This document shows, one piece after another, positions 10,444-45,195 of a stretch of DNA of 64,000 nucleotides. Source of the stretch: Neglectibacter timonensis (GTDB taxonomy: Bacteria > Bacillota > Clostridia > Oscillospirales > Acutalibacteraceae); the NCBI RefSeq assembly GCF_900048895.1, contig NZ_LT160637.1:129385-193384 (forward strand). The letters are read 5' to 3'. Each line of letters opens with the position of its first letter. The first letter of the stretch is position 1. The position numbers and the translations under genes were made by a program. A model generated the notes under the pieces. The model made no database searches. It was not told where the DNA came from and saw nothing but the letters and a program-made list of their open reading frames with translations.

Positions 10444-10530
10444 AAGCATTCCTCCCATACCTTTCTGAAGAAAGGTACACAGAATACTTCCCTGAGGAAA
10501 GCATTCCAGACTTTTTTTCCGCGGGGCAGC
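10444..10530 (-). repeat. Dispersed 5'-leader repeat, module A, before hemW
   Basis: Two hairpins face hemW: GAATGCTTTCC/GGGAAGTATTC and ACCTTTC-TTCA-GAAAGGT (10459 to 10476), preceded by GCGGAAAAAAAGTCTGG and followed by GGAGG and the ATG. Related copies precede the lipid kinase, trxB, DUF1667, xylB and trpY starts in this window. Confidence 0.85.
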
Positions 10531-10587
10531 CTGGTGTTTCCGGCCGCCCGCTCCCTGAAACCCGCACCTGCTTCCGGCCCATATTAA

Positions 10588-10890
10588 CCGGAAGCCTCTT
10601 TCGGAACGCGTGATCTGGGCCAGCCTCCTTCGCCCAACGCAGCGGCGGCACGCCGCAAGCCTCGTGATTTGGGTGCAGCGTCACGCTGCCGGAAGCCTCT
10701 TTCGGAACGCGTGATCCGGGCCAGCCTTTTTCACCCAACGCAGCGGCGGCACGCCGCAAGCCTCGTGACTTGGGTGCAGCGTCACGCTGCCGGAAGCCTC
10801 TTTCGGAACGCGTGATCCGGGCCAGCCTTTTTCGCCCAACGCGGCGGCGGCACGCCACAAGCCTCGTGACTTGGGTGCAGCGTCACGCTG
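10588..10890. repeat. Three tandem 101-base palindrome-rich units (module B)
   Basis: Units begin at 10588, 10689 and 10790, each opening CCGGAAGCCTCTTTCGGAAC and closing GTGCAGCGTCACGCTG, with only a few differences. Inside are GCGGCG/CGCCGC and GCAGCG/CGCTGC inverted repeats and an ACGCGT box. Single diverged copies occur at 41170 and 45060, and a fragment near 29475. The 466-base gap between lepA and hemW is almost entirely made of this array and module A. Confidence 0.95.
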
Positions 10891-10909
10891 CTCACGCTGC
10901 CCGCACTGG

Positions 10910-12712
10910 TTATTCGTCCAGCTTCAGCACGGACATAAACGCCTCCTGGGGAACTTCAACGGTGCCCAGCTGGCGCATCCTCTTTTTGCCTTCCTTCTGC
11001 TTTTCCAGCAGCTTTTTCTTCCGGGTGATGTCGCCGCCATAACATTTGGCCAGCACATCCTTGCGCATGGCCTTTACGGTCTCCCGGGCGATGATTTTTC
11101 CGCCGACGCAGGCCTGGATGGGAACCTCAAACAGCTGGCGCGGAATTTTCTCCTTCAGCTTCTCCGTCATTTTCCTGGCGCGGGGGTAGGCCTTTTCCGC
11201 ATGGAGAATAAAGGAAAGCGCGTCCACCACCTCTCCGTTGAGCATGATGTCCAGCTTCACCAACTCGCTCTTCCGGTATCCCATCAGCTCATAGTCGAAG
11301 GAGGCATAGCCGCGGGTGCGGGATTTCAACGCGTCAAAGAAATCATAGATGATCTCGTTGAGGGGCAGTTCATAGTGTATATCCACCCGGTCCGTGTCGA
11401 TATATTTCATATCCTTAAACACGCCGCGGCGCTCCTGGCACAGCTCCATAATATTTCCCACATATTCGGTAGGGGAATAGATATGGGCATTGGTGATGGG
11501 CTCCTCCGCCGAAGCGATGGTGGCGGGGTCCGGATAATTGGTGGGGTTGTCGATACTGATTTCCTCGCCATTGGTCTTTTTTATCTTGTACACCACGCTT
11601 GGAGCTGTGGTGATCAGATCCAGGTTATACTCCCGTTCCAGCCTTTCCTGGATGATCTCCATGTGCAGCAGGCCCAGAAAGCCGCAGCGGAAGCCAAAGC
11701 CCAGAGCCACAGAGGTTTCCGGCTCGAAGGTGAGGGAGGCGTCGTTGAGCTGCAGTTTTTCCAGGGCGTCCCTCAGGTCCGTATAGTGGGCGCCGTCCGC
11801 CGGATAGATGCCGCAGAACACCATAGGCTGCACCGCCCGGTATCCAGCCAGCGGCTCAGCTGCGGGACGGTCCGCCAGGGTAACGGTGTCGCCCACTCTG
11901 GCGTGGCGCACATCCTTGATAGAGGCGGCGATATAGCCTACCTCTCCGGCATACAGCGCCTCAGCGGGCTCCAATGAGGTGGCCCGGAGGAATCCGCACT
12001 CCACCACGGAAAACTCCCCGCCTGTGGCCATCATACGGATGGTATCGCCAGGCTTCACCGTACCGTCCTTGACGCGCACATAGACGATGACGCCGCGGTA
12101 GGCGTCGTAGTAGGAGTCAAAGACCAGCGCCCTCAGGGGATCCGTTTCATCCCCTCCGGGAGCCGGAATATCGGTGACAATGTGTTCCATAACTTCCCCG
12201 ATGTTTTCCCCTGTCTTGGCGGAAATGCGCGGCGCATCCATGGCAGGAATGCCGATGACGTCCTCGATCTCATGGCAGACCCGTTCAGGGTCTGCGCTGG
12301 GCAGGTCGATTTTATTGACAACGGGTACAATCTCCAGGCCCGCGTCCACCGCGAGATAGGTGTTGGCCAGGGTCTGCGCTTCAATGCCCTGGGAGGCATC
12401 CACCACAAGGACCGCGCCCTCGCAGGCGGCCAGGGAACGGGAAACCTCATAATTGAAATCCACATGGCCGGGGGTATCGATGAGGTTGAATACATAATCC
12501 TCTCCGTCACTGGCGGTATAGACCAGAGTGACGGCATGGGCCTTGATGGTGATGCCTCTTTCCCGCTCCAAATCCATGTTGTCCAGGAGCTGGTTCTCCA
12601 TCTCCCGCAGGGGTACGGCTTTGGTCTGCTCCAAAATGCGGTCCGCCAGAGTGCTCTTGCCGTGATCGATGTGGGCTACAATGCTGAAATTCCGAATTTT
12701 GCTTCTGTCCAT
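10910..12712 (-). CDS. lepA: Elongation factor 4 (LepA) GTPase
   Basis: 600 residues, the family's usual size when started at [20 protein letters not shown] (12712). GTPase boxes are visible: AHIDHGKST (G1), DTPGHVDF (G3), NKIDLP (G4) and SAKTG (G5). Domains II to V and the LepA-specific C-terminal domain ([27 protein letters not shown]) follow. It back-translocates or remodels stalled ribosomes and aids 30S assembly. In-frame sequence upstream lacks family similarity and crosses the promoter region, so it was left out. The binding site is weak (CGGAG, 12 bases away). Confidence 0.97.
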
Positions 12713-12907
12713 CTCTATTAACTCCGTTTGCAACCCGGTACAGCCGGGGAATATTTTTCCCAAAACCCGGAAGCATCCAAGTACTTTTCCAGGCAGCAGG
12801 ACAAATGCAGGCTGACGCCCGCGCTGTTTCCACTTATTATACACAAAACCACGGAAAAAGAAAAGTGTCCTTCTGCGGGGATTTTTCCGCAAACCAGCGG
12901 GAAAACG

Positions 12908-12936
12908 TTGCATTCTCCCTCGCAAGATGCTAGAAT
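12908..12936 (+). promoter_or_regulatory. Promoter of glyS
   Basis: TTGCAT, 17 bases, TAGAAT, about 46 bases before the glyS start. On the other strand a TATAAT box at 12837 to 12842, with a weak -35, may serve lepA. Confidence 0.75.
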
Positions 12937-12982
12937 TGTGAATACGAATTGAGAAAGAAATCAGAAAGGCGGTTCAGCTGTT

Positions 12983-14383
12983 ATGAAGGCAACCGAAAAG
13001 ACCATGGAGACCATCGTCAACCTCTGCAAGAGCCGGGGGTTTGTGTATCCCGGAAGCGAGATTTACGGAGGCCTGTCCAATTCCTGGGACTTCGGCCCTC
13101 TGGGCGTGGAGTTCAAGAACAACGTAAAAAAGGCCTGGTGGAAGAAATTCATCCAGGAAAGCCCCTATAATGTCGGTTTGGACGCCGCCATCCTGATGAA
13201 CCCCGAGGTCTGGGTGGCCACGGGCCATGTGGGCGGCTTCTCCGACCCGCTGATGGACTGCAAGGACTGCAAAACCCGCCACCGCGCCGACAAACTCATT
13301 GAGGATTTTACCGGAGAGTCGGCAGACGGCTGGGAAAACGAAAAGATGCTTTCCTTTATTCAGGAAAACCACATCAAGTGCCCCAACTGCGGCGGTGAGA
13401 ATTTTACGGATATCCGCCAGTTCAACCTGATGTACAAGACCTTCCAGGGTGTGACGGAAGATGCGAAAAATGAAATTTACCTGCGGCCGGAAACCGCCCA
13501 GGGCATCTTTGTAAATTTCAACAGTGTGCAGCGCACCACCCGGAAAAAGCTGCCCTTCGGCATCGGGCAGGTAGGCAAAAGCTTCCGCAACGAGATTACT
13601 CCCGGCAATTTTATCTTCCGCATCCGGGAATTTGAACAGATGGAACTGGAATTCTTCTGCAAGCCGGACACTGACCTGGAATGGTTTGCCTACTGGAAGG
13701 AATTCTGCAGAAATTGGCTGTTCAGCCTGGGTATGACTGAGGAAAACCTGCGCTTTCGCGATCATAGGCCTGAGGAGCTTTCTTTCTACTCCAAGGCCAC
13801 CACGGACGTGGAGTATCTGTTCCCCTTCGGCTGGGGTGAGTTGTGGGGCATTGCGGACCGCACTGACTACGACCTGAAGCGTCATCAGGAGCACTCCGGC
13901 AAAGACCTGACCTATTTTGACCAGGAGACCGGGGAGCATTACGTTCCCTATGTGGTAGAACCCTCTCTGGGCGCGGACCGTATGGCGCTGGCTTTCCTCT
14001 GCGACGCATACGACGAGGAAGTGGTGGACGCGGAAAAGAACGACACCCGCGTAGTCCTGCGCCTCCATCCCTTCCTGGCCCCCTTTAAGGCTGCCGTTCT
14101 GCCGCTTTCCAAGAAGCTGGGCGGAAAGGCGCAGGAGGTTCACCAGCTGCTTTCCAAATATTTCATGGTGGATTATGACGAATCCGGTTCCATCGGGAAG
14201 CGTTACCGCCGTCAGGACGAGATCGGCACCCCTCTGTGCATCACCGTGGATTTTGAAACCGTAGGCGACGGGGAAAAGTCCGCCGACAACTGCGTTACCG
14301 TCCGTGACCGGGACAGCATGGAGCAGGTCCGCATTCCCATTGACCAGCTGGTCTCCTATGTGGAGAAAAAAATGGAATTTTAA
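12983..14383 (+). CDS. glyS: Glycyl-tRNA synthetase, homodimeric type
   Basis: 466 residues. Class II signatures are clear: [12 protein letters not shown], the motif-2 region [20 protein letters not shown], and motif 3 [10 protein letters not shown]. The N-terminal [20 protein letters not shown] is diagnostic of the single-chain alpha2 enzyme rather than the GlyQ/GlyS tetramer. It charges tRNA-Gly with glycine. CxxC pairs (CKDCKTRH and CPNCGGENF) sit in the insertion that often binds zinc. An AAAGGCGG site precedes the ATG, with a good promoter upstream and a terminator immediately downstream, so it is monocistronic. Confidence 0.97.
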
Positions 14384-14392
14384 TGGAACTGG

Positions 14393-14427
14393 AAACAGGC
14401 CTCGGCAAAGCCGGGCCTGTTTTTTCC
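14393..14427 (+). terminator. Intrinsic terminator of glyS
   Basis: AACAGGCC-T-CGGC pairs with GCCG-G-GGCCTGTT-type sequence over an AAA loop and is followed by six T residues. Confidence 0.88.
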
Positions 14428-14468
14428 TCTTTCCCTGTTAAGGCATCCCATTGAAAAGGAGCTGCAGT

Positions 14469-15365
14469 ATGAAGCTGGACCGCCTGCTTGGCATACTCAT
14501 CACCCTGCTGCGCCAGGACAAGATAACCGCCCCTGTTCTCGCTGAAAAATTTGAAGTATCCCGGCGTACCATCAACCGTGATATTGAGGCCCTCTGTCTT
14601 GCCGGCATCCCTCTGGTGACAGAGCAGGGGCGGGGCGGCGGGATTTCCATCGCTCCAGGCTACAAGCTGGAAAAAGAGCTGCTCACCGAGGAGGAGCTTC
14701 AGGCCATCCTCATCGGCGTCCGAGGCGTAGACAGCATTCTGAAGCAGCCTAAGGGCCCCGTGTTGGCTGATAAACTCTCCCAACGTGAAACAGAGGAACA
14801 GGTGTTGATCGATTTGGCATCCTTTTATAAGGACAGCCTGACGGAAAAGATTTCCCTGCTGCGGGATGCCATTTCACGGCGGCTGGCCGTATCCTTCCGG
14901 TATTACTCCGAAAAAGGGGAGGAGCTGCGGCAGGCAGAGCCCTGCCGCATTGCCTACCAGTGGAACGCCTGGTATCTGATTGCCTGGTGCCGGACAAAAA
15001 AGGAGTTCCGCACCTTCAAGCTTGCCCGGCTTTGGGATCTCACCCTGTCGGAGGAGCATTTTGTTCCCAAACCCCTTCCTGCCGAAAAGGCGGATATGAA
15101 CTCTCTGTGGGAAGAAAATTATCGGCTGGTAGCCGTGTTTGATCCCAGCGTAAAGTACCGGCTGGTGGAGGAGTACGGGCCGGACAGCTTTACCCTGCGG
15201 GAGGACGGGCGCCTCTCTTTCACCCGGGATTTCACCTTCTATGGCGCCATGCTCTCCTGGATTTCTTCCTTCGGGGCGCAGGTACAGGTGCTCCAACCCG
15301 AATCGCTTCGGGAAGATCTCCTGCGGCAGGCAAAACTCCTCCTTTCCTATTATGAGGAAACATGA
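14469..15365 (+). CDS. WYL-domain transcriptional regulator (YafY/DeoR-like)
   Basis: 298 residues. The N-terminal winged helix-turn-helix (about 1 to 60) reads LAEKFEVSRRTINRDIEAL, typical of HTH_11. The WYL region begins near 130, with LAVSFRYYSEKGE, then AWYLIAWCRTKKEFRTFKLARL and a C-terminal WCX-like extension. WYL proteins sense small ligands or nucleic acids and often control stress or defence genes. The ATG at 14469 is eight bases after AAAGGAG. It sits between glyS and a flavin-barrel gene 107 bases downstream on the same strand, which is a plausible target. No operator was identified. Confidence 0.88.
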   Translation: MKLDRLLGILITLLRQDKITAPVLAEKFEVSRRTINRDIEALCLAGIPLVTEQGRGGGISIAPGYKLEKELLTEEELQAILIGVRGVDSILKQPKGPVLADKLSQRETEEQVLIDLASFYKDSLTEKISLLRDAISRRLAVSFRYYSEKGEELRQAEPCRIAYQWNAWYLIAWCRTKKEFRTFKLARLWDLTLSEEHFVPKPLPAEKADMNSLWEENYRLVAVFDPSVKYRLVEEYGPDSFTLREDGRLSFTRDFTFYGAMLSWISSFGAQVQVLQPESLREDLLRQAKLLLSYYEET

Positions 15366-15472
15366 CATAAAGCTGTCCTGTTCTATCTGCTATCCTGTTC
15401 TCAGCTCCTCCGGGAAACCGGAAGGATGCCGGATTCTAAAACACAATATGGTTGCGAACCGTAAGGGGAAGG

Positions 15473-16165
15473 ATGGGAAAAATGAAGGAAATAGAGAAGA
15501 AAGCCGCCGCTTTGCTGAAGCGCTGCGAAACAGTGATTTTGTCTTCCGTCACAGAGGAGGGTACGCCCAGGCCCTGTGTGGTCTCCAAGCTCAAGGCACA
15601 GGGATTCCGGACAATCTTCGCAGCCACGGGATTGAGCGGCCGCAAAACAGCCCAATTTCAGAAGAACCCGCTGGCTGGCGCCTGTTTTTTTCTGGACGGA
15701 GACAGCGTAACCATGACCGGTTCCGTCACCGTACACACCAGTGGAAAAACTCTTCGCGACTGCTGGCAGGATTGGATGCTGGAGCATTTTGAGCAGGGGG
15801 AAAGCGATCCGGATTACTGTGTCCTGCAGTTTACTGCCGAAGAGGCAACCTTCTGGATTGACGGGGAATTCTGTACAATCCGGTATCCCAAAGCGGAATC
15901 CCGCTGCGGCATCTGCTGTTCTGAAATGGACTGCAAAAACAAATTTGGATTCGACTGCCGCGGCTGCGTCCGGGAGCCTGACGCGCCCTGGGGTCACTGC
16001 GAAATCAAAGCCTGCTGTGAAGAGAAAGGCTGTCTCCACTGTGGGGAGTGCGAAGACTTCCCCTGTGGCGCTCTGCAGAAATTTGCCTTTGACCCGGAGC
16101 AGGGGGACCAGGGAAAACGGCTGGAAACCTGCCGCTGCTGGCAGAAAGGGGCTAAACTTTGCTGA
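15473..16165 (+). CDS. Flavin split-barrel protein fused to a Cys-rich DUF3795-like domain
   Basis: About 230 residues. Residues 5 to 130 look like the pyridoxamine 5'-phosphate oxidase-like FMN split barrel (TVILSSVTEEGTPRPCVVS, then GSVTV and the long helix WQDWMLEHFEQG). The tail from about 150 is rich in cysteines: CGICCSEMDC, CRGC, CEIKACCEEKGCLHCGEC and FPC, as in DUF3795 proteins. A metal- or Fe-S-assisted flavin reductase or sensor is a reasonable inference; the substrate is unknown. Starts at 15473 and 15482 both follow AAGGGGAAGG and cannot be told apart. It probably forms a unit with the next gene 24 bases on. Confidence 0.75.
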   Translation: MGKMKEIEKKAAALLKRCETVILSSVTEEGTPRPCVVSKLKAQGFRTIFAATGLSGRKTAQFQKNPLAGACFFLDGDSVTMTGSVTVHTSGKTLRDCWQDWMLEHFEQGESDPDYCVLQFTAEEATFWIDGEFCTIRYPKAESRCGICCSEMDCKNKFGFDCRGCVREPDAPWGHCEIKACCEEKGCLHCGECEDFPCGALQKFAFDPEQGDQGKRLETCRCWQKGAKLC

Positions 16166-16189
16166 GCTTACAGGAGGGTGTGAACTGAG

Positions 16190-16894: not shown

Positions 16895-16948
16895 AAAAAG
16901 CCTGCGGAAGGCAGTAAGAGCATTTTAGAGAAAAGATGTAAAAATACA

Positions 16949-16982
16949 GGGAGCAGTCCTGAAGGCGTTCAGGACTGCTCCC
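16949..16982. terminator. Bidirectional terminator between convergent genes
   Basis: GGGAGCAGTCCTGAA and TTCAGGACTGCTCCC form a perfect 15-base stem with a four-base loop. T-rich sequence follows on both strands. Confidence 0.88.
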
Positions 16983-17006
16983 TTACTTTCTCTTTTTCGC
17001 AGACGA

Positions 17007-17609
17007 TCAACGGATGCGGGTGCCGTCCGGCATGAATACAGGCCGGATGGGAGGAATTCTCAGCTCCACCGACGCACGGATGTCCTCTCCGGATCCGGAA
17101 ACACTGAGCACAATTTCGCTGCCGTCTTTTTTCCAAAGGGCGGCGTACCTTTCCTCTCCGCCCATGGACTTCAAGGCTTGTTCGTCCGCCTTACCGAAAG
17201 GCTGGGCTCCCGCTTCCTGCTCCTCATCGCCGTAGACCTTGCGCAGCGCTTCATAAAGCTTCACCGGATAGGCGTAATCCTCCTTCAGCAGGGCGGAATA
17301 TTCCACCAGTGAAGTCGGCCTTTGGTACAGCTCCTTTCCATTTCCCCTGCTGTCAGGCATAATCACCACATTCATTTGCTTTCCCAATACTTCTGCGCCG
17401 TTTTCCACCAGCAAGCAGTATTGCGGCTTTGCCGCCTCTTCCAGGCTCCCGGGCAGATCCAGAGCCTCAAACGCTTCACCCATGGGCCTGTCCAGCTGCT
17501 CCAGCGCCAGATTCATCTGATCTTCGATCCTTTTCTCCGGCTGAGCGCAGGCGGAAAGAGGGAACAGGCAACAGAGGATGCAGAGCCACAGAATAAGGAT
17601 TCTTTTCAT
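17007..17609 (-). CDS. Lipoprotein of tandem family, subtype A, copy 2
   Basis: 200 residues from an ATG after GGGAGCGGCTT. The N-terminus MKRILILWLCILCCLFPLSAC is a lipoprotein signal with lipobox LSAC, so it is tethered outside the membrane. The mature part starts QPEKRIEDQMNLALEQL and contains the family marks LDLPGSLEEAAK, LGKQMNVVI, YAYPVKLYEALRKVYG and the end PDGTRIR. No known domain was recognised. It is the last of four paralogues in a row; this A copy is paired with the B copy just upstream (56 bases). Confidence 0.85.
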   Translation of the reverse strand: MKRILILWLCILCCLFPLSACAQPEKRIEDQMNLALEQLDRPMGEAFEALDLPGSLEEAAKPQYCLLVENGAEVLGKQMNVVIMPDSRGNGKELYQRPTSLVEYSALLKEDYAYPVKLYEALRKVYGDEEQEAGAQPFGKADEQALKSMGGEERYAALWKKDGSEIVLSVSGSGEDIRASVELRIPPIRPVFMPDGTRIR

Positions 17610-17665
17610 AAGCCGCTCCCTTCTCCAAACGTCCCACGGGCACTGCCCTTTCTCCCGGTTCAGCG

Positions 17666-18286
17666 TCATCCGATAATTTTACCATCCGGGGAAATCGTGG
17701 GAAGACCCAGAAGCTCCACAGGCAGACTGATTTCAAGGGAGATACTGCTCCCACCGGCAGCAGAAGCTCCGACATTAAAGGAGATTACAATCACATAATC
17801 CTCCTTTTTCCACTGGTTTGCACACCTTTCGCTCTGTTTCATTGCCTCCAGAGAAACCTCCGTGGCCTGGCTGAAGGACTGGGCCCCTGTTACCGGCTCC
17901 GGCTCTCCATAGGCCTCCCGCAATGCCCTGTAAAGCTTAAGCGGATAGGCGTAGTCGCCGCCTAACAGAGCAAGATACTCGACGGAGTTCGTTTTCTCAT
18001 CGGTCAATTTCTTATCTTCCTCATCCTTACCTAAATGAACAATCGCTACATCCATCTGCTTTCCCAAAACCTTAACGCAGTCCTCCGCATGCAGATAAAA
18101 AACTTCTGCTGCATCTTCCGGATTGCCGGGCAGGCCCAGAGCCTGATACGCTTCCCCTAAGGGCTTTCCCAACTGCTCCTGTGCCATATTCACATGCTCC
18201 TCGACACTTTTTTCCGGTTGGGAACAGGCGGAAAGGGAGAACAGACAGCAGAGGATGCAAAGAAATAAATTAAAACTCTTTTTCAT
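17666..18286 (-). CDS. Lipoprotein of tandem family, subtype B, copy 2
   Basis: 206 residues. Start chosen at MKKSFNLFLCILCC (18286) after a GGAAAGGAAC-like site; longer in-frame sequence runs into the upstream gene. Lipobox LSAC, then SQPEKSVEEHVNMAQEQLGK. Shared family blocks are GEAYQALGLPGNPEDAAE, LGKQMDVAIVHLG and YAYPLKLYRALREAYGEPEP, with the end PTISPDGKIIG. It is most like the subtype B gene at 19001, from which it lies about 1.34 kb away. Function unknown; extracytoplasmic location inferred from the signal. Confidence 0.85.
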   Translation of the reverse strand: MKKSFNLFLCILCCLFSLSACSQPEKSVEEHVNMAQEQLGKPLGEAYQALGLPGNPEDAAEVFYLHAEDCVKVLGKQMDVAIVHLGKDEEDKKLTDEKTNSVEYLALLGGDYAYPLKLYRALREAYGEPEPVTGAQSFSQATEVSLEAMKQSERCANQWKKEDYVIVISFNVGASAAGGSSISLEISLPVELLGLPTISPDGKIIG

Positions 18287-18335
18287 TGGCAGTTCCTTTC
18301 CCCGCTCTTCGAGATACACCGCTTTTTCGGTCTGG

Positions 18336-18944
18336 CTACCTGATGCGGGTACCGTCCGGCGTGTAAATAGGCGAAAGGCCCAGCCGTTCCAGTGGAATTT
18401 TAATGTCAAGGGCAAGGGTACAGGCTTTTTCATCGACAGAATAGAGAAGTACGATCTCGTTGTCCTCCGTCCTCCACAGTCCCGCGCATTCTTCGTCCAG
18501 CACCATGGATTTCAGGGAGTCCTCAGTTGCCTCATTAAAGGGCAGACGGCTGCCCATTGGCTCCATCTCTCCATAAAGGTCTGACAATTCCTGATAAAGG
18601 GCAAGAGCATAGGCATAGTCGCCGTCTAAGTGAATAAAATATTCCACGATCGACGTCGACCTTTCCATCAATTCCCCTTCCTCCTCCCCGGCATGGTCGA
18701 GCACTACGCCGAGACGTTTTCCATGCAGTTCGACACTGTCCTCTGCCAGCAGAAAAGGAAATACGACTGCATCCTCCGGATTGCCGGGCAGGCCCAGGGC
18801 CTGATACGCTTCCCCCAGGGGCTTGCCTAACTGGGCAAGCCCCATCTCCACAAGGTCTTCCACGCTTTTTCCGGGCTGCGAACAGGCGGAAAGGGGGAAC
18901 ATACAGCAGAGGATGCAGAGCCACAGAATAAGGATTCTTTTCAT
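18336..18944 (-). CDS. Lipoprotein of tandem family, subtype A, copy 1
   Basis: 202 residues from MKRILILWLCILCCMFPLSAC, whose signal is nearly identical to the subtype A copy at 17007. The 60 bases before its ATG also match that copy almost base for base, showing a recent duplication of the leader too. The mature part has GLAQLGKPLGEAYQALGLPG (shared with subtype B copy 2, suggesting gene conversion) and ends YTPDGTRIR. The middle is more diverged than the ends. No catalytic motif is visible. Confidence 0.85.
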   Translation of the reverse strand: MKRILILWLCILCCMFPLSACSQPGKSVEDLVEMGLAQLGKPLGEAYQALGLPGNPEDAVVFPFLLAEDSVELHGKRLGVVLDHAGEEEGELMERSTSIVEYFIHLDGDYAYALALYQELSDLYGEMEPMGSRLPFNEATEDSLKSMVLDEECAGLWRTEDNEIVLLYSVDEKACTLALDIKIPLERLGLSPIYTPDGTRIR

Positions 18945-19000
18945 AAGCCGCTCCCTTCTCCAAGCGTCGCACGGGCACTGCCCTTTCTCCCGGTTCAGCG

Positions 19001-19630
19001 TCATCCGATAATTTCACCATCCGGGGAAATCGTGGGAAGATCCAGAAGTTCATCTGGTATTCTGATATCAAGCGAGATGCTGTCAAGCCTCTCACCGGCA
19101 GCGGAAGTTCCTACATAAAAGGAGATTTCGATCACATAATCCTCCTTTTCCCAACGGCCCACACACCTTTCGCTCTGTTTCATTGCTTCCAGAGAAGCCT
19201 CCGTGGCTTCGCCAAAGGACTGAGCCCCTGTTACCGGCTCCGCCTCACCATAGGCCTTAAGCAGCGCCTGATAAAGTTTGAGCGGATAGGCATAGTCCCC
19301 GTCCAGAAAGGCGCTGTACGCTACGGATTCCGTTTTTTGCTCTGTCAATTCCTGGCCTTCCTCATGCCGCCCCAGATGAAGAAGCGCCACGTTACTCTGT
19401 TTTCCGAGAACATTGACAGCGTTCTCCACCAGCAAGCAGTATTGGGGTTTTGCAGCCTCCTCCAGGCTTCCCGGTAGCTTCATGCCTTCGAACGCTTCAC
19501 CCAAGGGCTTACCAAACTGTTCCAGCGCCAGGTTAACATGATCCTCAATGCTCTTTTCCGGCTGGGAACAGGCGGAAAGAGGGAACAGGCAACAGAGGAT
19601 GCAGAGAAATAAGCTAACACTCTTTTTCAT
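19001..19630 (-). CDS. Lipoprotein of tandem family, subtype B, copy 1
   Basis: 209 residues from MKKSVSLFLCILCC with lipobox LSAC. Blocks shared with its paralogues are KLPGSLEEAAKPQYCLLVEN (also in subtype A copy 2), YAYPLKLYQALLKAYGEAEP, VTGAQSFGEATEASLEAMKQ and PTISPDGEIIG. It is the most upstream member of the set of four and follows the possibly frameshifted secreted-protein gene by 65 bases, which may supply the promoter for the whole run. Function unknown. Confidence 0.85.
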   Translation of the reverse strand: MKKSVSLFLCILCCLFPLSACSQPEKSIEDHVNLALEQFGKPLGEAFEGMKLPGSLEEAAKPQYCLLVENAVNVLGKQSNVALLHLGRHEEGQELTEQKTESVAYSAFLDGDYAYPLKLYQALLKAYGEAEPVTGAQSFGEATEASLEAMKQSERCVGRWEKEDYVIEISFYVGTSAAGERLDSISLDIRIPDELLDLPTISPDGEIIG

Positions 19631-19695
19631 CGGCAGTTCCTTTCTCCCCGATTCACTACAGGCATCGCTGGTTAAGATAGAACAAAACCGAGTTC

Positions 19696-29375: not shown

Positions 29376-29513
29376 TATTTCTGTACTTTTCTGAAGAAAG
29401 GTACCCAGAATGGCTTTCCTGCGGAAAGCATTCCAGGCTTTTATTCCGCGGGGTTCTACGCACCGGGGAACAGCACCCACGCGTCATGGGCGCTGCGTCA
29501 CGCTGCTCTGCTC
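29376..29513 (-). repeat. Dispersed leader repeat before the lipid kinase
   Basis: Module A at 29384 to 29450: GCGGAATAAAAGCCTGG, hairpin GAATGCTTTCC/GGAAAGCCATTC, then ACCTTTCTTCAGAAAAGT, ending about 25 bases before the ATG. A truncated module B end (GCAGCGTGACGCAGCG and ACGCGTGGGTG) lies at 29475 to 29513 and overlaps the end of the upstream gene. Confidence 0.8.
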
Positions 29514-36293: not shown

Positions 36294-36300
36294 GGCTGAA

Positions 36301-36345
36301 CCTCCTTCCAACTTTCTTACAAAAAGTTGGACACAGACTTTTCTT
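36301..36345 (-). repeat. Diverged leader repeat, module A, before trxB
   Basis: Minus strand: AAAAGTCTGTGT, then CCAACTTT-TTGTAAG-AAAGTTGG, then AAGGAGG. Same order as the other copies (A-rich box, hairpin, binding site) but with a different stem sequence. Confidence 0.6.
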
Positions 36346-36388
36346 TCGGCTTTGCACTGCTTCCTGCAGAAAACTGTTCAGGAAACCA

Positions 36389-37586: not shown

Positions 37587-37608
37587 ACGATTTCCTCCTG
37601 TTTATTCT

Positions 37609-37986: not shown

Positions 37987-37997
37987 ATAGTTCTCCT

Positions 37998-38273
37998 TCC
38001 CATACCTTTCTGAAGAAAGATATCCAAAATGCTTCCCTGAGGAAAGCACTCCAAACTTTTATTCCAATTTCCAGTTTTCGGTCCGCTTCACGATGCCCCC
38101 TTTCTGCTTCCAGTTCCTATTGGAGGAAGCAGAGATCAGCCGCGTGATCCGGACGCATATCTTTCACAAAACGCAGCGGCAGCAGGCAGCAATTCTCCGC
38201 TTCGGGTCTTGATCCCCACTGGGGATCGGTCAGCGTTCCGCTCCGACCGGTGCTGCCGACACACCGCCGGTTT
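37998..38273 (-). repeat. Dispersed repeat between flavoprotein and DUF1667 genes
   Basis: Module A at 38004 to 38065: GGAATAAAAGTTTGG, hairpin GTGCTTTCC/GGGAAGCAT-type, then ATCTTTC-TTCA-GAAAGGT. The rest of the gap to 38273 holds a strongly diverged module B (CGTGATCCGG, AACGCAGCGGCAG) and a GGGGATC/GATCCCC inverted repeat. Confidence 0.75.
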
Positions 38274-39533: not shown

Positions 39534-39603
39534 TTTGATCTGTTCCTTTCTCCGGGCTGCGGCGGCCTGTGCCGCCCGCTTCCCTCCCGCGCCGAAAACG
39601 CGG

Positions 39604-41034
39604 TCAGCCCCTTGTCTTTTCCAATACAATCTCCGAACCCTTTTCATTCTTGCGGATTTCCCTTAAATCCAAGGACAGTTCCCTGGCCAAAAGCTCCATC
39701 ACCCTGGGAGAACAGAACCCGCTCTGGCAGCGGCCCATTCCCGCTCTCGTACGGCGCTTGACCCCATCCAGCGTTTTTGCTCCCAGGACTCCGTGAATGG
39801 CATCCAGGATTTCCCCTTCGGAAACCTGTTCACAACGGCAGATGATGTTGCCGTAGGCAGGATTTTTCTCTATGTACGCCTTTCGCTGCTCCGCAGGCAT
39901 ATCGTGCAGTCTGGGCACGCCTCTGCGGATCGGCTGGAAGTTTTCCTTCCGCGCCAGCTGCAGCTTCTCAGCAATCAGCGCCGCCAAATACTCCCCAATG
40001 GCTGATGCACTGGAAAGGCCCGGGGATTCGATACCCGCCGCGTCAAAAAAGCCCTCTGCGGTTTCTCCCAGCACAAAGTCATCCCCTGCCTCATGGGCCC
40101 GCAGGCCGGTAAAGGAAGTGATCACCTGGCGGATTGGGATGTTCCTGACGCCCAGAGCGGACTTCTCCAGCACTTCTCCGAGTCCTTCCGCCGTGGTTTT
40201 GGTTTCCTCCCTGTCCTCTATATCAGCGGCAGTGGGACCCAGCAGCAAATTTCCATGAACCGTAGGGCTCACCAACACGCCCTTTCCGTATTTCCCGGGC
40301 AATTGAAATATGGTATGGGAGACATGCTGTCCCGCGGTCTTATCCAGCAGGCAGTATTCTCCTTTTCTGGAGGCGACGTGCAGTTTGTTTTCGCATACCA
40401 GGTTGTGCAGCTCATCGGAATGGACTCCGGCGGCGTTGACCACCGCTTTTGTCAGAAAGTCTTCCCCGGAGGTCTTCACCAGCCAGCCGTCCTCCCGGCG
40501 CTCCAGGCCGGTTATCTGCGTCTCAAAATAAAACTGCGCGCCGTTCATTGCGGCATTTTCCGCCAGGCCCAGGGTCAGCTCAAAGGGGCATACAATGCCT
40601 GAAGTCTCCGCCAGCAGCGCGCCGCATACCGCATCGGAGAGGTTGGGCTCCAGGGCAAGCGCCTCCTCCCGGTTCAGCAGCTTCAGGCCGGGTACGCCGT
40701 TAGCAAGCCCCCGCTCATAAAGCTCCTTCAGCTTCGGCAGCTCCTCCTCATGCAGGCACACCACAAAGGCCCCGCAGCGCTGAAAGGGAATGTCCAGCTC
40801 TTCAGCGAGCTTGTCCATTTTCTCATTGCCTCTGACATTCATTTTCGCTTTCCAGGTCCCGGGCTCCGCGTCGAAGCCTGCGTGGATAATCGCGGAATTG
40901 GCCTTGCTGGTGCCTTCGCACACATCCGCATTCTTTTCCAAAACCGCAATGCTCCCCTCAAACCGGGACAATTCTCTTGCCACTGCCGAGCCGATCACTC
41001 CCGCACCGGCAATCACGATATCACATTGTATCAT
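39604..41034 (-). CDS. GlpA/LhgO-like FAD dehydrogenase with BFD-type [2Fe-2S] domain
   Basis: 476 residues. The DAO fold begins AGAGVIGSAVARELSRFEG and includes SAIIHAGFD and the FAD-closing GIESPGLSSASAIGEYLA. The C-terminal part has CRC near residue 408 and GRCQSGFC near 443, the four-cysteine pattern of a bacterioferritin-associated-ferredoxin-like [2Fe-2S] domain as in anaerobic GlpA. Substrate is probably glycerol-3-phosphate or a 2-hydroxy acid. The ATG at 41034 follows GGAGGAAGG. It is first gene of the operon and diverges from the xylulokinase gene, with 362 bases between them. Confidence 0.92.
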   Translation of the reverse strand: MIQCDIVIAGAGVIGSAVARELSRFEGSIAVLEKNADVCEGTSKANSAIIHAGFDAEPGTWKAKMNVRGNEKMDKLAEELDIPFQRCGAFVVCLHEEELPKLKELYERGLANGVPGLKLLNREEALALEPNLSDAVCGALLAETSGIVCPFELTLGLAENAAMNGAQFYFETQITGLERREDGWLVKTSGEDFLTKAVVNAAGVHSDELHNLVCENKLHVASRKGEYCLLDKTAGQHVSHTIFQLPGKYGKGVLVSPTVHGNLLLGPTAADIEDREETKTTAEGLGEVLEKSALGVRNIPIRQVITSFTGLRAHEAGDDFVLGETAEGFFDAAGIESPGLSSASAIGEYLAALIAEKLQLARKENFQPIRRGVPRLHDMPAEQRKAYIEKNPAYGNIICRCEQVSEGEILDAIHGVLGAKTLDGVKRRTRAGMGRCQSGFCSPRVMELLARELSLDLREIRKNEKGSEIVLEKTRG

Positions 41035-41068
41035 TTCAATACCTTCCTCCGTATTTTCATACGTTAAT

Positions 41069-41097
41069 AGATTATCATATAGCGGCTTTTCCCGCAA
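41069..41097 (-). promoter_or_regulatory. Promoter of the GlpA-like operon
   Basis: Minus strand: TTGCGG, 17 bases, TAATCT. On the plus strand a TTGACA at 41130 with weak GAAAAT near 41153 may start the xylB transcript. Confidence 0.55.
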
Positions 41098-41164
41098 GTA
41101 AAACAACTGCAAAAAACCTGAAATTTTCCTTGACAGAATTGAACAAATAGCTGAAAATAAGGGA

Positions 41165-41390
41165 AAGAGGCAGCGTGACGCTGCACCCATGACGCGTGGA
41201 TTGCGGCGTACCGCCGCTGCGTTGGGCGAAAGAGACTGGCCCGGATCACGCGTCCCGGAAGAGACTTCCGGTTTATATTGGGCGGAAGCAGGTTCGGGCT
41301 TCGGGAAGCAAGTGACCGGTCGCGCCGCACTGCCCCGCGGAATAAAAGTCTTTGGGGATACCTTCCTTTTAATAAGGTATGGAAAGGAGT
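41165..41390 (+). repeat. Dispersed repeat (modules B and A) before xylB
   Basis: Module B runs from GCAGCGTGACGCTGC (41170) through GCGGCGTACCGCCGC and CCGGAAGAGACTTCCGG to about 41290. A linker ends in GCGGAATAAAAGTCTTTGGG, and module A closes with hairpin ATACCTT/AAGGTAT, 14 bases before the xylB start and overlapping its binding site region. This is the only copy in a divergent promoter region. Confidence 0.88.
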
Positions 41391-41396
41391 CAAAAA

Positions 41397-42923
41397 ATGG
41401 AATATTTAATTGGAATCGATTTGGGTACCAGCGGCACAAAGACTGTGCTGTTCGACAAAACGGGAAAAGTGATTTCCAGCGCCAGCCTGGAATATCCCAT
41501 GTTTCAGGAAAAGAACGGCTGGGCGGAGCAGGAGCCTGCAGACTGGTGGCACGCGGCTGCGGATACCATCCGCACGGTGATTGAGAAAAGCGGGATAGAC
41601 GCCGGGGAGGTCAAAGGCGTGGGGATCTCCGGCCAGATGCATGGGCTGGTGATGCTGGACCGCGACGGGAAAGTGCTGCGGCGCTCCATCATCTGGTGCG
41701 ACCAGCGCACAGCCGCTGAGTGTGAAGAAATCACGGAGAAGGTGGGGGCAAAGCGTCTCATAGAGATCACGGCGAACCCTGCGTTGACGGGCTTCACGGC
41801 CTCCAAAATCCTGTGGGTCAGGAATCATGAACCGGAAACCTATGCAAAATGCGCCCATATCCTGCTGCCCAAGGACTATGTCCGCTACATGCTCACAGGC
41901 GATTTTGCCACGGAAGTATCAGATGCTTCCGGCATGCAGCTTCTGGATGTACCGAACCGCTGCTGGAGCAAGGAGGTCCTGGAAAAGCTGGACATTGAGG
42001 AAAGTCTGCTGGCGAAGGTCTACGAGTCCCCGGAGGTGACGGGCTCCATCACGGAAGAGGCTGCGAAACTGACGGGTCTGAAGGCCGGAACCCCTGTGGT
42101 GGGCGGCGCGGGGGACAACGCCGCAGCAGCCGTAGGTACCGGAGTGGTACGGGACGGCAAGGCCTTTACTACCATTGGTACCTCTGGCGTGGTTTTCGCC
42201 CATACAGATCATATTTCTATCGATCCCAAGGGCAGAGTGCATACCTTCTGCTGCGCGGTGCCCGGCGCCTGGCATGTGATGGGCGTCACCCAGGGCGCGG
42301 GACTCTCCCTGAAGTGGTTCCGGGACAACTTCTGTGCAGAGGAAAAGCGTACGGCGGAGGGCATGGGGGTGGATCCCTATTTCCTGATGGACCGGGAAGC
42401 GGAGCGTTCCCCCATTGGCTGCAATAAGCTGCTGTACCTTCCTTACCTCATGGGAGAACGCACGCCCCATCTGGATCCGGACTGCCGCGGCGTTTTCTTC
42501 GGTCTCTCCGCCATCCATACCAAATACGATATGCTGCGGGCTGTGATGGAGGGCGTGACTTACTCTCAGCGGGACAGCGTGGAAATTCTCCGCGGCATGG
42601 GCGTGGAACTCCAGGAAATGCTGGCCTGCGGCGGCGGCGGAAGCTCTCCATTGTGGCGGCAGATGCTGGCAGACGTGTACGACTGCCCGGTAAAAACCGT
42701 AAAATCCAAGGAAGGCCCCGCACTGGGCGCAGCCATTCTGGCAGGCGTGGGCGCGGGACTGTATCCCTCCGTGCAGGAGGCCTGCGACGCTATGATTCAA
42801 ACCAATGAACCCCAGGAACCCATCTCGGAAAACGTGCCTCGGTACGATGCCTTCTATCAGGTTTACCGCTCTCTGTACCCGGCGCTGAAGGAAAACTTTA
42901 AACAGCTGGCTGCAGCAGAATAA
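41397..42923 (+). CDS. xylB: Xylulokinase (FGGY-family sugar kinase)
   Basis: 508 residues, started at MEYLIGIDLGTSGTK (seven bases after AAGGAG). The phosphate-1 motif GIDLGTSGTKT, the xylulokinase-type GQMHGLV, catalytic-region GDNAAAAVGTG and the late FGGY motif (EGVTYSQRDSVEIL, CGGGGSSPLW) are present. It phosphorylates D-xylulose to the 5-phosphate for the pentose phosphate pathway; other ketoses are possible. No xylose isomerase or transporter is adjacent. It is expressed alone and ends at a strong terminator. The leader contains the dispersed repeat, giving a long 5' untranslated region. Confidence 0.92.
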   Translation: MEYLIGIDLGTSGTKTVLFDKTGKVISSASLEYPMFQEKNGWAEQEPADWWHAAADTIRTVIEKSGIDAGEVKGVGISGQMHGLVMLDRDGKVLRRSIIWCDQRTAAECEEITEKVGAKRLIEITANPALTGFTASKILWVRNHEPETYAKCAHILLPKDYVRYMLTGDFATEVSDASGMQLLDVPNRCWSKEVLEKLDIEESLLAKVYESPEVTGSITEEAAKLTGLKAGTPVVGGAGDNAAAAVGTGVVRDGKAFTTIGTSGVVFAHTDHISIDPKGRVHTFCCAVPGAWHVMGVTQGAGLSLKWFRDNFCAEEKRTAEGMGVDPYFLMDREAERSPIGCNKLLYLPYLMGERTPHLDPDCRGVFFGLSAIHTKYDMLRAVMEGVTYSQRDSVEILRGMGVELQEMLACGGGGSSPLWRQMLADVYDCPVKTVKSKEGPALGAAILAGVGAGLYPSVQEACDAMIQTNEPQEPISENVPRYDAFYQVYRSLYPALKENFKQLAAAE

Positions 42924-43072
42924 GCTTTCATCCAATCACACCCCCGGCGCAGGGCTCCTGCACCGGGGATATTTCTGCTGCTTCCTTCCCCACGGTGATG
43001 CGAAAGCAGAATTGGGTATTTAATTCCTGCAAATGTTCCGGGCAGCAGGCCTGTCCGAATTGAAAAAGAGAG

Positions 43073-43128
43073 AAAAGGGGCACAGGCCCGCCGGAAAAAT
43101 TGCTTCGGCGGGCCTGTGCCCCTTTTTT
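43073..43128. terminator. Bidirectional terminator between xylB and trpZ
   Basis: AAAAGGGGCACAGGCCCGCCG pairs almost perfectly across a seven-base loop, one of the longest stems in the window, with T-runs on both strands. Confidence 0.93.
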
Positions 43129-43133
43129 CAGGT

Positions 43134-43928
43134 TCAGGAAAGCAGCATTCTGTCGTTGTCCAGCTGTTCACCGCTTTTTTGGCGGAACAACTCCAGCAGC
43201 TTTTCCACTGTCATACGTTCCCGTTCTTTCCCGGAAAGGTCCAGGATGATCTTTCCCTGCTGCATCATCAGGGTACGGTCCCCGCAGTCCAGCGCAGATT
43301 GGATATTGTGGGTAATCATCAGCGTGGTGATCGTATTTTCCCGCACGATCTTCCGGGTCAGCGCCAGCACCTTATCCGCCGTCGCGGGGTCCAGAGCCGC
43401 GGTATGCTCATCCAACAGCAGCAGCTTCGGGGTGGATATGGTGGCCATGAGCAGGGTAATGGCCTGTCTCTGACCGCCTGAGAGGAGGCCTACCCGGGTT
43501 TTCAGCCGGTCCTCCAGCCCCAGATCCAGCTCCCGGAGCTTTTCCCGGAAAAAGGCTGCATTTTTCCGGCTGGTGGCAGGCGCCAGGCTCCGGTGCGTCC
43601 CCCTCAGGTAGGCCAGAGACAGGTTTTCCTCTATGGTCATACTGGGCGCTGTGCCCATCAGGGGGTCCTGAAACAGATGCCCAATGTTTCTGGCCCGCTT
43701 ATGCTCGGGCAGATAGGTCACGTCCTTCCCACTCAGCGTCACGCTGCCGGAGTCGGGAAGATACGACCCGGAAATCAGCTTCAGCAAGGTGGATTTTCCC
43801 GCTCCGTTCCCTCCGATCAGGGTGATGAATTCCCCTTCCGGCACAGTGAGGTTGACATGGTCGATGGCTTTTCGTTCATTGACCGTTCCCGCGTAAAAGG
43901 TCTTGCAGAGCTCCCGCAGTTCCAACAT
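43134..43928 (-). CDS. trpZ: ABC transporter ATPase of the T-box-controlled tryptophan system
   Basis: 264 residues from MLELRELCKTF, eight bases after AAGGAG. Walker A GGNGAGKST, Q-loop HLFQDPL, signature LLSGGQRQAI and Walker B LLLLDEHTAALDP are complete. The class (COG1101) is the partner of COG4120 permeases and COG2984 binding proteins. Its start shares one base with the permease stop (TGATG), so the two are coupled. Energises import at the cytoplasmic membrane. Confidence 0.9.
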   Translation of the reverse strand: MLELRELCKTFYAGTVNERKAIDHVNLTVPEGEFITLIGGNGAGKSTLLKLISGSYLPDSGSVTLSGKDVTYLPEHKRARNIGHLFQDPLMGTAPSMTIEENLSLAYLRGTHRSLAPATSRKNAAFFREKLRELDLGLEDRLKTRVGLLSGGQRQAITLLMATISTPKLLLLDEHTAALDPATADKVLALTRKIVRENTITTLMITHNIQSALDCGDRTLMMQQGKIILDLSGKERERMTVEKLLELFRQKSGEQLDNDRMLLS

Positions 43929-44893
43929 CAGCCATTCTCCTTTCCGCCGTCTGTCTGCTTCAGCTTCCGTTTTTGTCCCCGCAGCTTCACTGCATCCCGC
44001 GCCACGGGATAGGAGATTGCAATCACGACTATGACGGAGGAGAGGAGCTTCATATCCGACGTGGTGATATTGAGGAATTTCAAAGCGGGCAGGGTATTGT
44101 ACTGAAGTACCAGTCCGATGATGATACGGTAAAGGATGGAGCCGCACACAGCTGAAATCACTCCCGTGAGCATGGTGCGGCGCTTACACAGAAAATAGAG
44201 CAGATTCCCGAAAATCACCTCTCCGATGATCAGGGAGGCGAGCCCGATCACCACCACGCCGATGCCCATTCCAGCGTCTGCAGACTGCTGGTATTGGGCC
44301 AGCACGCCGCCGGAAAGACCCACCATGGCATTGGCCACCACCAGTCCCAGCGTTTTCGTAAAGTTTCCATTGATGGAAGAGGAACGGACCATATTTTCAT
44401 TGTCACCTGTTGCACGTACGGAAAGGCCAAGCTGCGTATTCAAAAACAGGACCAGGGCCGCCAGCACTACCGCCAGAAAGATCCCGATCAGCAGCAGTTT
44501 TCCAAAGTCCCCGAAGGTATCCTTGAAAAAACTGAAAACCGTGGTAAGGTTGATGGCGTTTACGCTGGCTTTTCCTCCCATCACCCGCAGGTTGATGGAA
44601 TAAAGGGCCGTCATCGTGAGAATTCCTGCTAGTATGGATTGGATTTTCAGCTTTGTCTGCAGGAAGGCCGTTACAAAACCAGCAGCCGCACCGGTCAGCA
44701 CCGCCGCCAAAATTCCCAGCCAGGGCATCCCCGCCGCCGTCAGCATGATAGAGGAGGCCGCTCCCAGGGTGAAGCTTCCGTCCACCGTCAAATCCGCCAG
44801 GTTCAGAATGCGGTAGCTGAGAAACAGCCCCACCGCTACCAGCCCATAGACCAATCCCAATTCTACTGCGCCCCGCAGCGCCACATCACTCAT
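43928..44893 (-). CDS. trpY: ABC transporter permease of the tryptophan system
   Basis: 321 residues with eight or more hydrophobic helices. LADLTVDGSFTLGAA near residue 32 and SVRATGDNENMVRS in the cytoplasmic loop are marks of COG4120 permeases. The ATG at 44893 follows GGGGGAAAATA. A 293-base gap separates it from the binding-protein gene, unusually long for such an operon, and it is filled by dispersed repeat modules; two module A hairpins lie before its binding site. Confidence 0.9.
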   Translation of the reverse strand: MSDVALRGAVELGLVYGLVAVGLFLSYRILNLADLTVDGSFTLGAASSIMLTAAGMPWLGILAAVLTGAAAGFVTAFLQTKLKIQSILAGILTMTALYSINLRVMGGKASVNAINLTTVFSFFKDTFGDFGKLLLIGIFLAVVLAALVLFLNTQLGLSVRATGDNENMVRSSSINGNFTKTLGLVVANAMVGLSGGVLAQYQQSADAGMGIGVVVIGLASLIIGEVIFGNLLYFLCKRRTMLTGVISAVCGSILYRIIIGLVLQYNTLPALKFLNITTSDMKLLSSVIVVIAISYPVARDAVKLRGQKRKLKQTDGGKENG

Positions 44894-44897
44894 TATT

Positions 44898-45195
44898 TTC
44901 CCCCATTTCCGCCTTTCTGAAAAAAGGCGGGCAAAGACTTTTTCTTCCGCAGGGCAGCCTTTCGCTCCCCGATGCCATTCCCTTTCTGAAGAAAGGTAAC
45001 CCAAAGACTTTTACTCCGCAGGGCAGCGCGGCGCTACCGGCCACTTGCTCCCCGATGCCCGAACCTGCCTCCGTCCAACATAAACCGGAAGTCTCTTCCG
45101 GGACGCGTGATCCCGGGCAGTCTCTTTCGTCCAACGCAGCGGCGGTACGCCGCAATCTACGCGTCATGGGTGCAGCGTCACGCTGCTCACGTTGC
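44898..45195 (-). repeat. Dispersed repeat with two module A copies and one module B
   Basis: Minus strand, in order: module B (45060 to 45190, with GCAGCGTGACGCTGC, GCGGCGTACCGCCGC and CCGGAAGAGACTTCCGG), then CTGCCCTGCGGAGTAAAAGTC with hairpin ACCTTTC-TTCA-GAAAGG, then a second CTGCCCTGCGGAAGAAAAAG with hairpin CGCCTTTTTTCAGAAAGGCG, then the trpY start. Confidence 0.9.

What the first reader, a model, noticed from the sequence alone, without database searches (positions are those of the whole stretch)
10444..45195. A dispersed hairpin repeat docked onto ribosome binding sites of six unrelated genes
Seven copies at six loci share the order GC-rich box, AAAAGTC-like stretch, hairpin (usually ACCTTTC-TTCA-GAAAGGT), binding site, ATG. 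Targets are hemW (10444), a lipid kinase (29376), trxB (36301), DUF1667 (37998), xylB (41341) and trpY (44898, two copies). The orientation is always toward the start codon, and five of six lie between co-directional genes. Consistent position and orientation are hard to explain by random insertion and suggest a shared 5'-leader device (translation control, mRNA processing or protection of the downstream cistron), or a mobile repeat that survives only when it supplies a leader. I know of no named family for it.
Basis: partly seen in the sequence, partly recalled or inferred. Interest (0 to 1): 0.72.

Follow-up and report, generated by a model that had tools for sequence, protein, structure and literature searches.

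The report
Start-docked hairpin repeat in gut Clostridia
A short repeated hairpin sits just before the start of many unrelated genes in this gut bacterium, often in tandem rows; it belongs to a repeat family for which we found no name, carried by some members of its order, whose two halves stay matched in an unusual mirror-like way.

Summary
The window copies (9 pattern hits, 0.04 expected) belong to a genome-wide family: 64 model hits at E<=0.01, grouped by me into 32 loci, many of them tandem arrays. At 23 of 32 loci the last hairpin ends 12-38 nt before a sense start codon (8.6% of intergenic placements expected; P about 5e-18). The stem covaries (score 0.448 against 0.190 shuffled). In three related genomes leader-type copies are start-docked in 8 of 18 cases, a second type in 0 of 31; the second type follows stop codons (14 of 31 against 0 of 18). 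In the order, 26 of 394 genomes carry the core motif; one has several hundred copies, none start-docked in 100 kb. So the leader idea is partly supported: a REP/BOX-like repeat with a start-docked branch, probably an intercistronic mRNA hairpin (inferred). Unexpectedly, the upstream pyrimidine box mirrors the stem: of 36 asymmetric boxes 31 match the 3' arm in parallel, 0 antiparallel, 5 neither, though copies are related. No Rfam match; five paper searches found no description.

The parts
10456..10478 (-). terminal hairpin before hemW (start codon 10441-10443)
10482..10507 (-). extra inner hairpin between box and terminal hairpin
   Evidence: by eye
10508..10520 (-). AAAAAAAGTC box, degenerate
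   Evidence: by eye
10588..10891 (-). three tandem 101-bp GC-rich modules upstream of the hemW copy
   Evidence: (TRF)
29383..29404 (-). terminal hairpin before the diacylglycerol kinase gene, with an inner hairpin upstream to about 29436
36307..36351 (-). box and hairpin before trxB; changed but paired stem
38002..38069 (-). box, inner hairpin and terminal hairpin before the DUF1667 gene
41335..41380 (+). box and hairpin before the FGGY kinase gene (xylB); the only window copy in a divergent region
44908..44951 (-). second (start-proximal) unit before the permease gene (BPD_transp_2)
44977..45021 (-). first unit of the two-unit array before the permease gene

Best explanation
It is a branch of a REP/BOX-like interspersed palindrome family of this bacterial order that occupies intercistronic junctions in the sense orientation. 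Shown: a unit of a GC-rich domain, an AU-rich box (GGAANAAAAGTCTTTGG) and a covarying hairpin; local tandem duplication; the last hairpin ending a few bases before the SD; co-directional neighbours at 21 of 23 docked loci; turnover between species with some sites shared. Inferred: the unit acts in the mRNA. In a polycistronic transcript the AU-rich single-stranded box followed by a stable hairpin would offer an RNase Y type cleavage site, and the hairpin would then cap the 5' end of the downstream cistron beside its own SD, separating genes that in relatives are tightly packed (the spacer before trxB is about 20 nt or less, or overlapping, in 11 of 15 relatives). The sense bias would follow because only this orientation puts the hairpin, and an SD, directly before the start.
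For: Docking 23 of 32 loci against 8.6% expected, P about 5e-18. Covariation on one copy per locus (28 own loci and a MAG; 26 distinct rows): 90.6% of cells paired, 7 of 10 pairs with changes on both sides, score 0.448 against 0.190; no shuffle of 500 reaches the score or the percentage, no slid register exceeds 0.141. Internal control in G003/G011/G012 (49 of the 50 hits there): start-docked 8 of 18 leader-type against 0 of 31 second-type, P 1e-4; stop-proximal 0 of 18 against 14 of 31, P 6e-4. Same gene and site in other species with different stems: ricT-like gene in a Neglectibacter MAG, trxB in G011. Tight junctions without the element before trxB in 11 of 15 relatives, by my reading. Hairpin-to-start distance 12-38 nt, median 17, in 27 docked copies. 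Published passages seen: RNase Y favours a GA dinucleotide in AU-rich unstructured sequence with structure downstream (PMC11780869); intergenic stem-loops direct processing and stabilise ends in the cip-cel operon of Ruminiclostridium (PMC10311766, abstract and passages).
Against: No expression data; cleavage is not shown, and PMC11780869 itself reports that the hairpin downstream of the cggR site governs product stability more than cleavage, while in the cip-cel paper most cuts lie downstream of the stem-loop. Six window segments fold no better or only slightly better than shuffles (z -0.01 to -1.93; the -0.01 segment was cut short at the hairpin foot), and in 5 of 27 docked copies the local fold prefers other pairings. 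The number of pairs with double changes alone is reached by 11 of 500 shuffles and by 152 of 500. Docked genes have no common function, so no regulon. The ricT-like gene lacks a copy in the 15 other same-genus genomes read. 9 of 32 loci are not start-docked. The mirror rule is not explained by processing.
Confidence: 0.45

Rival explanations
1. A neutral or parasitic mobile repeat. It can survive only in the few bases between a stop codon and the next SD, so docking reflects tolerance, and arrays are ordinary minisatellite growth. Covariation is kept because a transposition system or DNA cruciform needs the palindrome.
For: Family-wide abundance without start docking (399 and 243 pattern matches in G289; 0 of 30 copies with a called downstream gene within 40 nt of a sense start in 100 kb). 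Presence/absence differences before trxB and the ricT-like gene. Within-array units are alike (85-97% match by TRF) although loci differ.
Against: No antisense-docked copy among the 64 hits, apart from one beside a 36-codon ORF call inside an array, although 8.6% of placements would qualify on that side too. Two types in the same genomes occupy different niches. No Y1/RAYT transposase (PF01797) in G000 or G244. Target-site duplications were not established.
Confidence: 0.33
2. A translational switch. The pyrimidine-rich 5' arm is complementary to the SD and sequesters it unless the hairpin forms; ribosomes or proteins on the upstream cistron decide.
For: Partition-function folding gives about 3 or more expected pairs between 5' arm and SD region in 12 of 27 docked copies, and the hairpin loses in 5 of 27.
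Against: The tested SD window overlaps the hairpin's own 3' arm in short-gap copies, so 12 of 27 is too high. Several copies have an accessible SD (up to 0.96 unpaired; median 0.52). Stem foot sequences vary freely.
Confidence: 0.12
3. The conserved object is a three-stranded structure: the upstream pyrimidine box lies parallel to the purine 3' arm of the hairpin (U.A-U and C+.G-C triples), in RNA or in single-stranded DNA during mobilisation.
For: 36 asymmetric boxes (distinct sequences): 31 parallel-complementary, 0 antiparallel, 5 neither. 90 of 105 distinct family-like sequences obey the rule, within-genome permutation mean 46.7, maximum 63 in 2000; leaving out loci chosen with a length-fixed pattern, 63 of 73, permutation maximum 39. 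G289: box/5' arm/3' arm lengths (6,7,6) x9, (5,6,5) x23, (4,5,4) x3 without exception. The mixed T5/A6 pattern has 0 matches in G289 and 1 in nine genomes.
Against: Copies are related by descent: the 35 G289 copies are only 6 distinct core sequences, one each for T6 and T4, so a few subfamilies spreading as units could give much of the association. Only 4-6 triples; C+.G-C is weak at neutral pH (recalled). Deviating copies exist (G244, G159, G011, G282).
Confidence: 0.08

Closest known systems
Pneumococcal BOX elements (boxA-boxB-boxC; PMC3049150, passages seen)
   Same: Firmicute intergenic repeat, predicted stem-loops, variable tandem copies of the middle module, tens of loci per genome, no clear functional class of neighbour gene
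   Different: BOX is over-represented between convergent genes and was argued there to be parasitic; this branch is docked to start codons in sense. Sequences were not compared.
REP / BIME palindromes of enterobacteria and pseudomonads (PMC2817692, abstract start in a search listing; the rest recalled)
   Same: More than 100 short extragenic palindromes per genome, composite mosaics; a conserved short box 5' of the hairpin (recalled)
   Different: No RAYT/Y1 transposase in this genome. Here one branch is start-docked. The GTAG box of REPs (recalled) is not the AAAAGTCTTTGG box.
Intercistronic processing stem-loops (cip-cel operon of Ruminiclostridium, PMC10311766; cggR operon of B. subtilis, PMC11780869; abstract and passages)
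   Same: Stem-loops between cistrons and protection of transcript ends; for RNase Y, AU-rich unstructured sequence with structure downstream
   Different: Those are operon-specific structures; here one repeated family stands before unrelated genes. Cleavage is not shown here.

Membership tests
Known Rfam families | match at gathering score | tested here: not met
   0 matches in the 64-kb window, both strands
REP/RAYT elements | short extragenic palindrome in high copy number | tested here: met
   64 hits at E<=0.01 in G000; 399 + 243 pattern matches in G289
REP/RAYT elements | Y1 REP-associated transposase in the genome | tested here: not met
   PF01797 absent in G000 and G244; present in 6 of 8 element-bearing genomes tested, so no consistent link
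BOX elements | tandemly repeated stem-loop module | tested here: met
   TRF arrays of 1.9-5.0 copies, period 81-122, at 13 own loci
BOX elements | boxA and boxC terminal modules | not tested
   no comparison with BOX sequences was run
Intrinsic terminator | GC stem followed by a U-run on the sense strand | tested here: not met
   the docked hairpins are followed mainly by purine-rich SD sequence (27 copies printed)
Intercistronic processing element | position between co-directional genes | tested here: met
   21 of 23 docked loci
Intercistronic processing element | endonucleolytic cleavage and altered stability | not testable with these tools
   no RNA data
MITE | terminal inverted repeats and target-site duplication | tested here: inconclusive
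   junctions before trxB without the element were read, but relatives are too distant to define the insertion point

The most novel reading that the evidence does not exclude
An intergenic element for which no name was found, present in at least six families of one bacterial order and reaching several hundred copies in a genome, is built as a register-locked mirror repeat: a 5' pyrimidine box that follows, base for base and in parallel, the purine strand of the next hairpin. Mirror (not palindromic) symmetry is what a triple helix needs and what dimeric proteins rarely read (recalled), so the element may fold as a triplex-capped hairpin. One branch would then serve as a portable intercistronic leader, another as a gene-end element.
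Probability: 0.14. Interest if true: 0.82.

Novelty: new variant of a known kind. Interest (0 to 1): 0.57.

Why it matters
If the leader reading holds, these bacteria have a portable intercistronic hairpin standing at more than twenty unrelated genes, a natural test of how packed operon junctions are converted into separately expressed cistrons. The two branches with different positional niches in the same genomes allow start-side and stop-side roles of one motif to be compared directly. The mirror rule is a specific, checkable structural signature that ordinary stem pairing does not predict.

Tried and rejected
RAYT/IS200 mobilisation: PF01797 is absent from the window's genome and from G244, and present in other carriers and in non-carriers; not supported. 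Intrinsic terminator: sense hairpins are followed mainly by purines, not a U-run. Known RNA family: no Rfam match in the window. Antiparallel pairing of the box with the 3' arm as the reason for box-stem matching: 0 of 36 asymmetric boxes. Regulon: Pfam on 22 docked genes (of 26 proteins given; the other four are window paralogues that are not docked; 2 of the 22 had no match at the cut-offs used) shows no shared function. Conserved leader of each gene: none of 15 (ricT-like) and 1 of 15 (trxB) other same-genus genomes carry it. In one search the trxB rows mostly failed ('nf', a regex fault) and were redone. At the ricT-like gene the judgement is by eye: G011 and G012 have GC-rich hairpins without this core before the SD, and the own copy's box is itself degenerate, so a box search is uninformative there.

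Limits of the counts: the first look of the genome search scored 150 of about 4000 candidates in G000, so copy numbers are lower bounds. The 32 loci and 23 docked loci are my grouping of the 64 hits with E<=0.01; for three (C8:24638, C13:395443, C13:543686) I took the start codon next to the hairpin where my gene caller had chosen another. C13:543686 and C14:1345740 are a duplicated gene with its leader and are not independent. Two window loci (29383, 38002) fall just outside E<=0.01 and are not in the 32; weaker hits were left out too. The gene caller is a home-made codon and SD model. The docking background was measured on the fetched regions, not on the whole genome. In one search one of 50 hits (G011:C64:17, at a contig end) was not fetched, and one copy (G011:C189:8325) that I read by eye as leader-type was classed as second type. 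The mirror survey used the window, L039-L065, L097-L137 and L187-L212 plus L217-L236, counts distinct sequences, and includes loci chosen by patterns or by a model that favour matched lengths; one search repeats it without the pattern-chosen loci.
Full report
Observation. The copies are present and are not chance (9 hits against 0.04 expected). Reading the loci shows a box and a hairpin directed at a start codon at hemW, a diacylglycerol kinase, trxB, a DUF1667 protein, an FGGY kinase and a BPD_transp_2 permease (Pfam; hemW and trxB named by domain and recall). Three copies have a second, inner hairpin. The window holds no Rfam family at gathering score and no tRNA.

Genome-wide. A covariance model from ten copies finds 83 hits at E<=1 and 64 at E<=0.01 in the window's genome G000 (3.67 Mb). 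I group the 64 into 32 loci. Many are tandem arrays: TRF reports period 81-122 and 1.9-5.0 copies at 13 own loci with 85-97% match (14 sources run). Reading the loci from upstream stop to downstream start shows arrays that largely fill the intergenic spacer, units alike within a locus and clearly different between loci, and a unit of a GC-rich domain (such as GGGCATCGGGGAGCGGGC...GTCCGAAGCCGG), the box AANAAAAGTCTTTGG and the hairpin. RNAalifold on 17 units proposes a stem in the GC-rich domain as well; its covariation was not tested.

Docking. At 23 of 32 loci the last hairpin ends close to a sense start codon; 21 of these 23 have a co-directional upstream gene. In 27 docked copies examined in detail (26 own, including weaker hits, and one from a Neglectibacter MAG) the distance is 12-38 nt, median 17, with the SD usually a few bases after the hairpin. 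Among all intergenic placements in the fetched regions 8.6% would lie within 40 nt of a sense start; the binomial P is about 5e-18. Of the other nine loci, four lie 0-12 nt from the 3' end of a convergent gene (expected 3.5%, P 0.025) and one overlaps such a gene. No hit lies within 40 nt of an antisense start except one beside a 36-codon ORF call inside an array. Docked genes are functionally unrelated: CinA, a biotinyl-domain protein, mannose-6-phosphate isomerase, alanine racemase, a phosphoribosyltransferase, an ABC transporter, an AMP-binding enzyme, a phage-like tail chaperone and others (22 docked genes). One docked pair (C13:543686 and C14:1345740) is a duplicated gene with its leader.

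Structure. On an alignment fitted to the model the stem scores 0.461 for covariation against 0.173 in shuffles. On a separate MAFFT alignment with one copy per locus (28 own loci and the MAG; 26 distinct rows; hairpin bounds taken from the model hits) it is 0.448 against 0.190, 90.6% of cells pair, 7 of 10 pairs have changes on both sides, and slid registers reach at most 0.141. The count of doubly changed pairs by itself is not decisive (reached by 11 of 500 shuffles and 152 of 500). Six single window segments fold only as well as or slightly better than shuffles (z -0.01 to -1.93), and in 5 of 27 docked copies the local ensemble prefers other pairings, partly between 5' arm and SD.

Relatives. 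At E<=0.01, 9 of 18 other same-genus genomes and 0 of 11 other genomes of the order have hits. In G003, G011 and G012 two types are visible: a leader type with box AAAAGTTCTTTG, and a second type with box AAAAGTTTTTG followed, by eye, by a second GC hairpin. By script, on 49 of the 50 hits there, the leader type is start-docked in 8 of 18 copies and stop-proximal in 0 of 18; the second type 0 of 31 and 14 of 31 (Fisher P 1e-4 and 6e-4). By eye several undocked leader-type copies end directly before promoter-like or terminator-like sequences (not tested). Two docked sites are shared between species with different stems: a ricT-like gene (PSP1 domain) in an uncultured Neglectibacter record and trxB in G011. 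But the ricT-like gene lacks a copy in the 15 other same-genus genomes read (by eye; G011 and G012 have other GC hairpins there), and trxB has it only in own and G011 among 16 read; in 11 of the other 15, by my reading, the preceding gene ends about 20 nt or less before, or overlaps, the trxB start. The element therefore turns over, and it stands in junctions that are tight elsewhere.

Wider family. The core pattern AAAGTYTTTG-N2-9-CTTTYTTCARAAAG occurs in 26 of 394 genomes of the order, in 22 of 168 genera and under six family labels; the reversed control pattern is 0 in the table. G289 holds 399 matches, and 243 of the one-longer pattern (8 of 300 genomes of the family). In 100 kb of G289, 32 copies show no start docking (0 of 30 with a called downstream gene within 40 nt of a sense start). 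So the start-docked branch looks like a lineage feature of a general intergenic repeat.

The mirror rule. An automatic survey of loci of 30 genomes that imposes nothing on the 3' arm finds 131 distinct instances of AAAG + pyrimidine tract + hairpin, in 22 genomes and including evident non-members; in 94 the 3' purine tract begins with the parallel complement of the box. Restricted to 105 family-like instances it is 90, against a within-genome permutation mean of 46.7 and maximum of 63 in 2000. Many of these loci had been chosen with a pattern of fixed lengths; without them it is 63 of 73, permutation mean 25.9, maximum 39. Where the box is asymmetric, so that parallel and antiparallel differ, 31 of 36 are parallel, 0 antiparallel, 5 neither, in G000, G003, G011, G012, G244 and the MAG. 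In G289 box and stem lengths go together in 35 of 35 copies (6/7/6, 5/6/5, 4/5/4), but these are only six distinct core sequences; three of them share the same stem foot and differ by one base each in box, 5' arm and 3' arm together. The mixed pattern box T5 with stem A6 has no match in the whole G289 genome (1 match in nine genomes, in G282). The reverse mixture could only be checked in the 100 kb. Exceptions exist (G244; G159 and G011). Stem pairing alone does not ask for this. Descent of a few subfamilies explains part or most of it; a pyrimidine-motif triple helix, which needs mirror symmetry, would explain the rest but is unproven.

Interpretation. I think the leader branch works in mRNA as an intercistronic hairpin beside the SD. 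The AU-rich box with GA in front and structure behind fits what has been reported for RNase Y in B. subtilis (passages of PMC11780869), and intergenic stem-loops direct processing and protect ends in a clostridial operon (abstract and passages of PMC10311766), although most cuts there lie downstream of the stem-loop. This step is inference. The nearest known repeat by anatomy is the pneumococcal BOX element with its tandem boxB modules (passages of PMC3049150), but BOX is over-represented between convergent genes, unlike the docking here. A survey of structured RNAs in human microbiomes (PMC8040213, passages) reports candidates directly upstream of genes and palindromic ones; its supplementary tables were not consulted, so overlap cannot be excluded.

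What is not in print, as far as searched: five paper searches aimed at such a family (listings only apart from PMC8040213) gave no description of it; subscription papers and preprints are not held. The organism name is not given by the tools; the nearest named record is Neglectibacter, Oscillospiraceae in the NCBI taxonomy.

Noticed in passing
window 10588-10891: Three tandem copies (96% match by TRF) of a 101-bp GC-rich module upstream of the hemW hairpin; related modules recur near 38141, 41200 and 45104 (and by eye).
   Followed up: partly
window 17007-19630 (-): Four adjacent genes of about 200 codons that look paralogous from their DNA repeats, with no Pfam match at 1e-5.
   Followed up: partly
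L148, L147, L146 (sequence before trxB): G001 and G010 carry other hairpin-bearing sequence just before trxB, and G007 has different upstream sequence, so this junction may be a repeated insertion site in the genus.
   Followed up: no
L048:13672-13715: The docked gene is a PSP1-domain protein, ricT-like by recall; RicT forms a complex with RNase Y in B. subtilis (a reference title seen).
   Followed up: no
L062 about 4190 and L043 about 4240: A ThuA-family gene and a near copy share the same leader, inner hairpin and SD, as if gene and leader were duplicated together; the reading frame from the docked start is 79 codons in L062 and 258 in L043.
   Followed up: partly
L046, L049, L052, L042: A subfamily with stem CCGTCTTTC-TTCA-GAAAGACGG (or close), three of these four beside the stop end of a convergent gene; three of the four (not L049) also carry another palindromic mosaic with CTTCCCC...GGGGAAG.
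   Followed up: partly
L054:3963-4292: An 88-bp tandem repeat of 3.7 copies without this core.
   Followed up: no
L100 (hit G011:C21:13122), L102, L105, L120: Copies whose hairpin is followed within a few bases by a sequence resembling a sigma-70 promoter (by eye).
   Followed up: no
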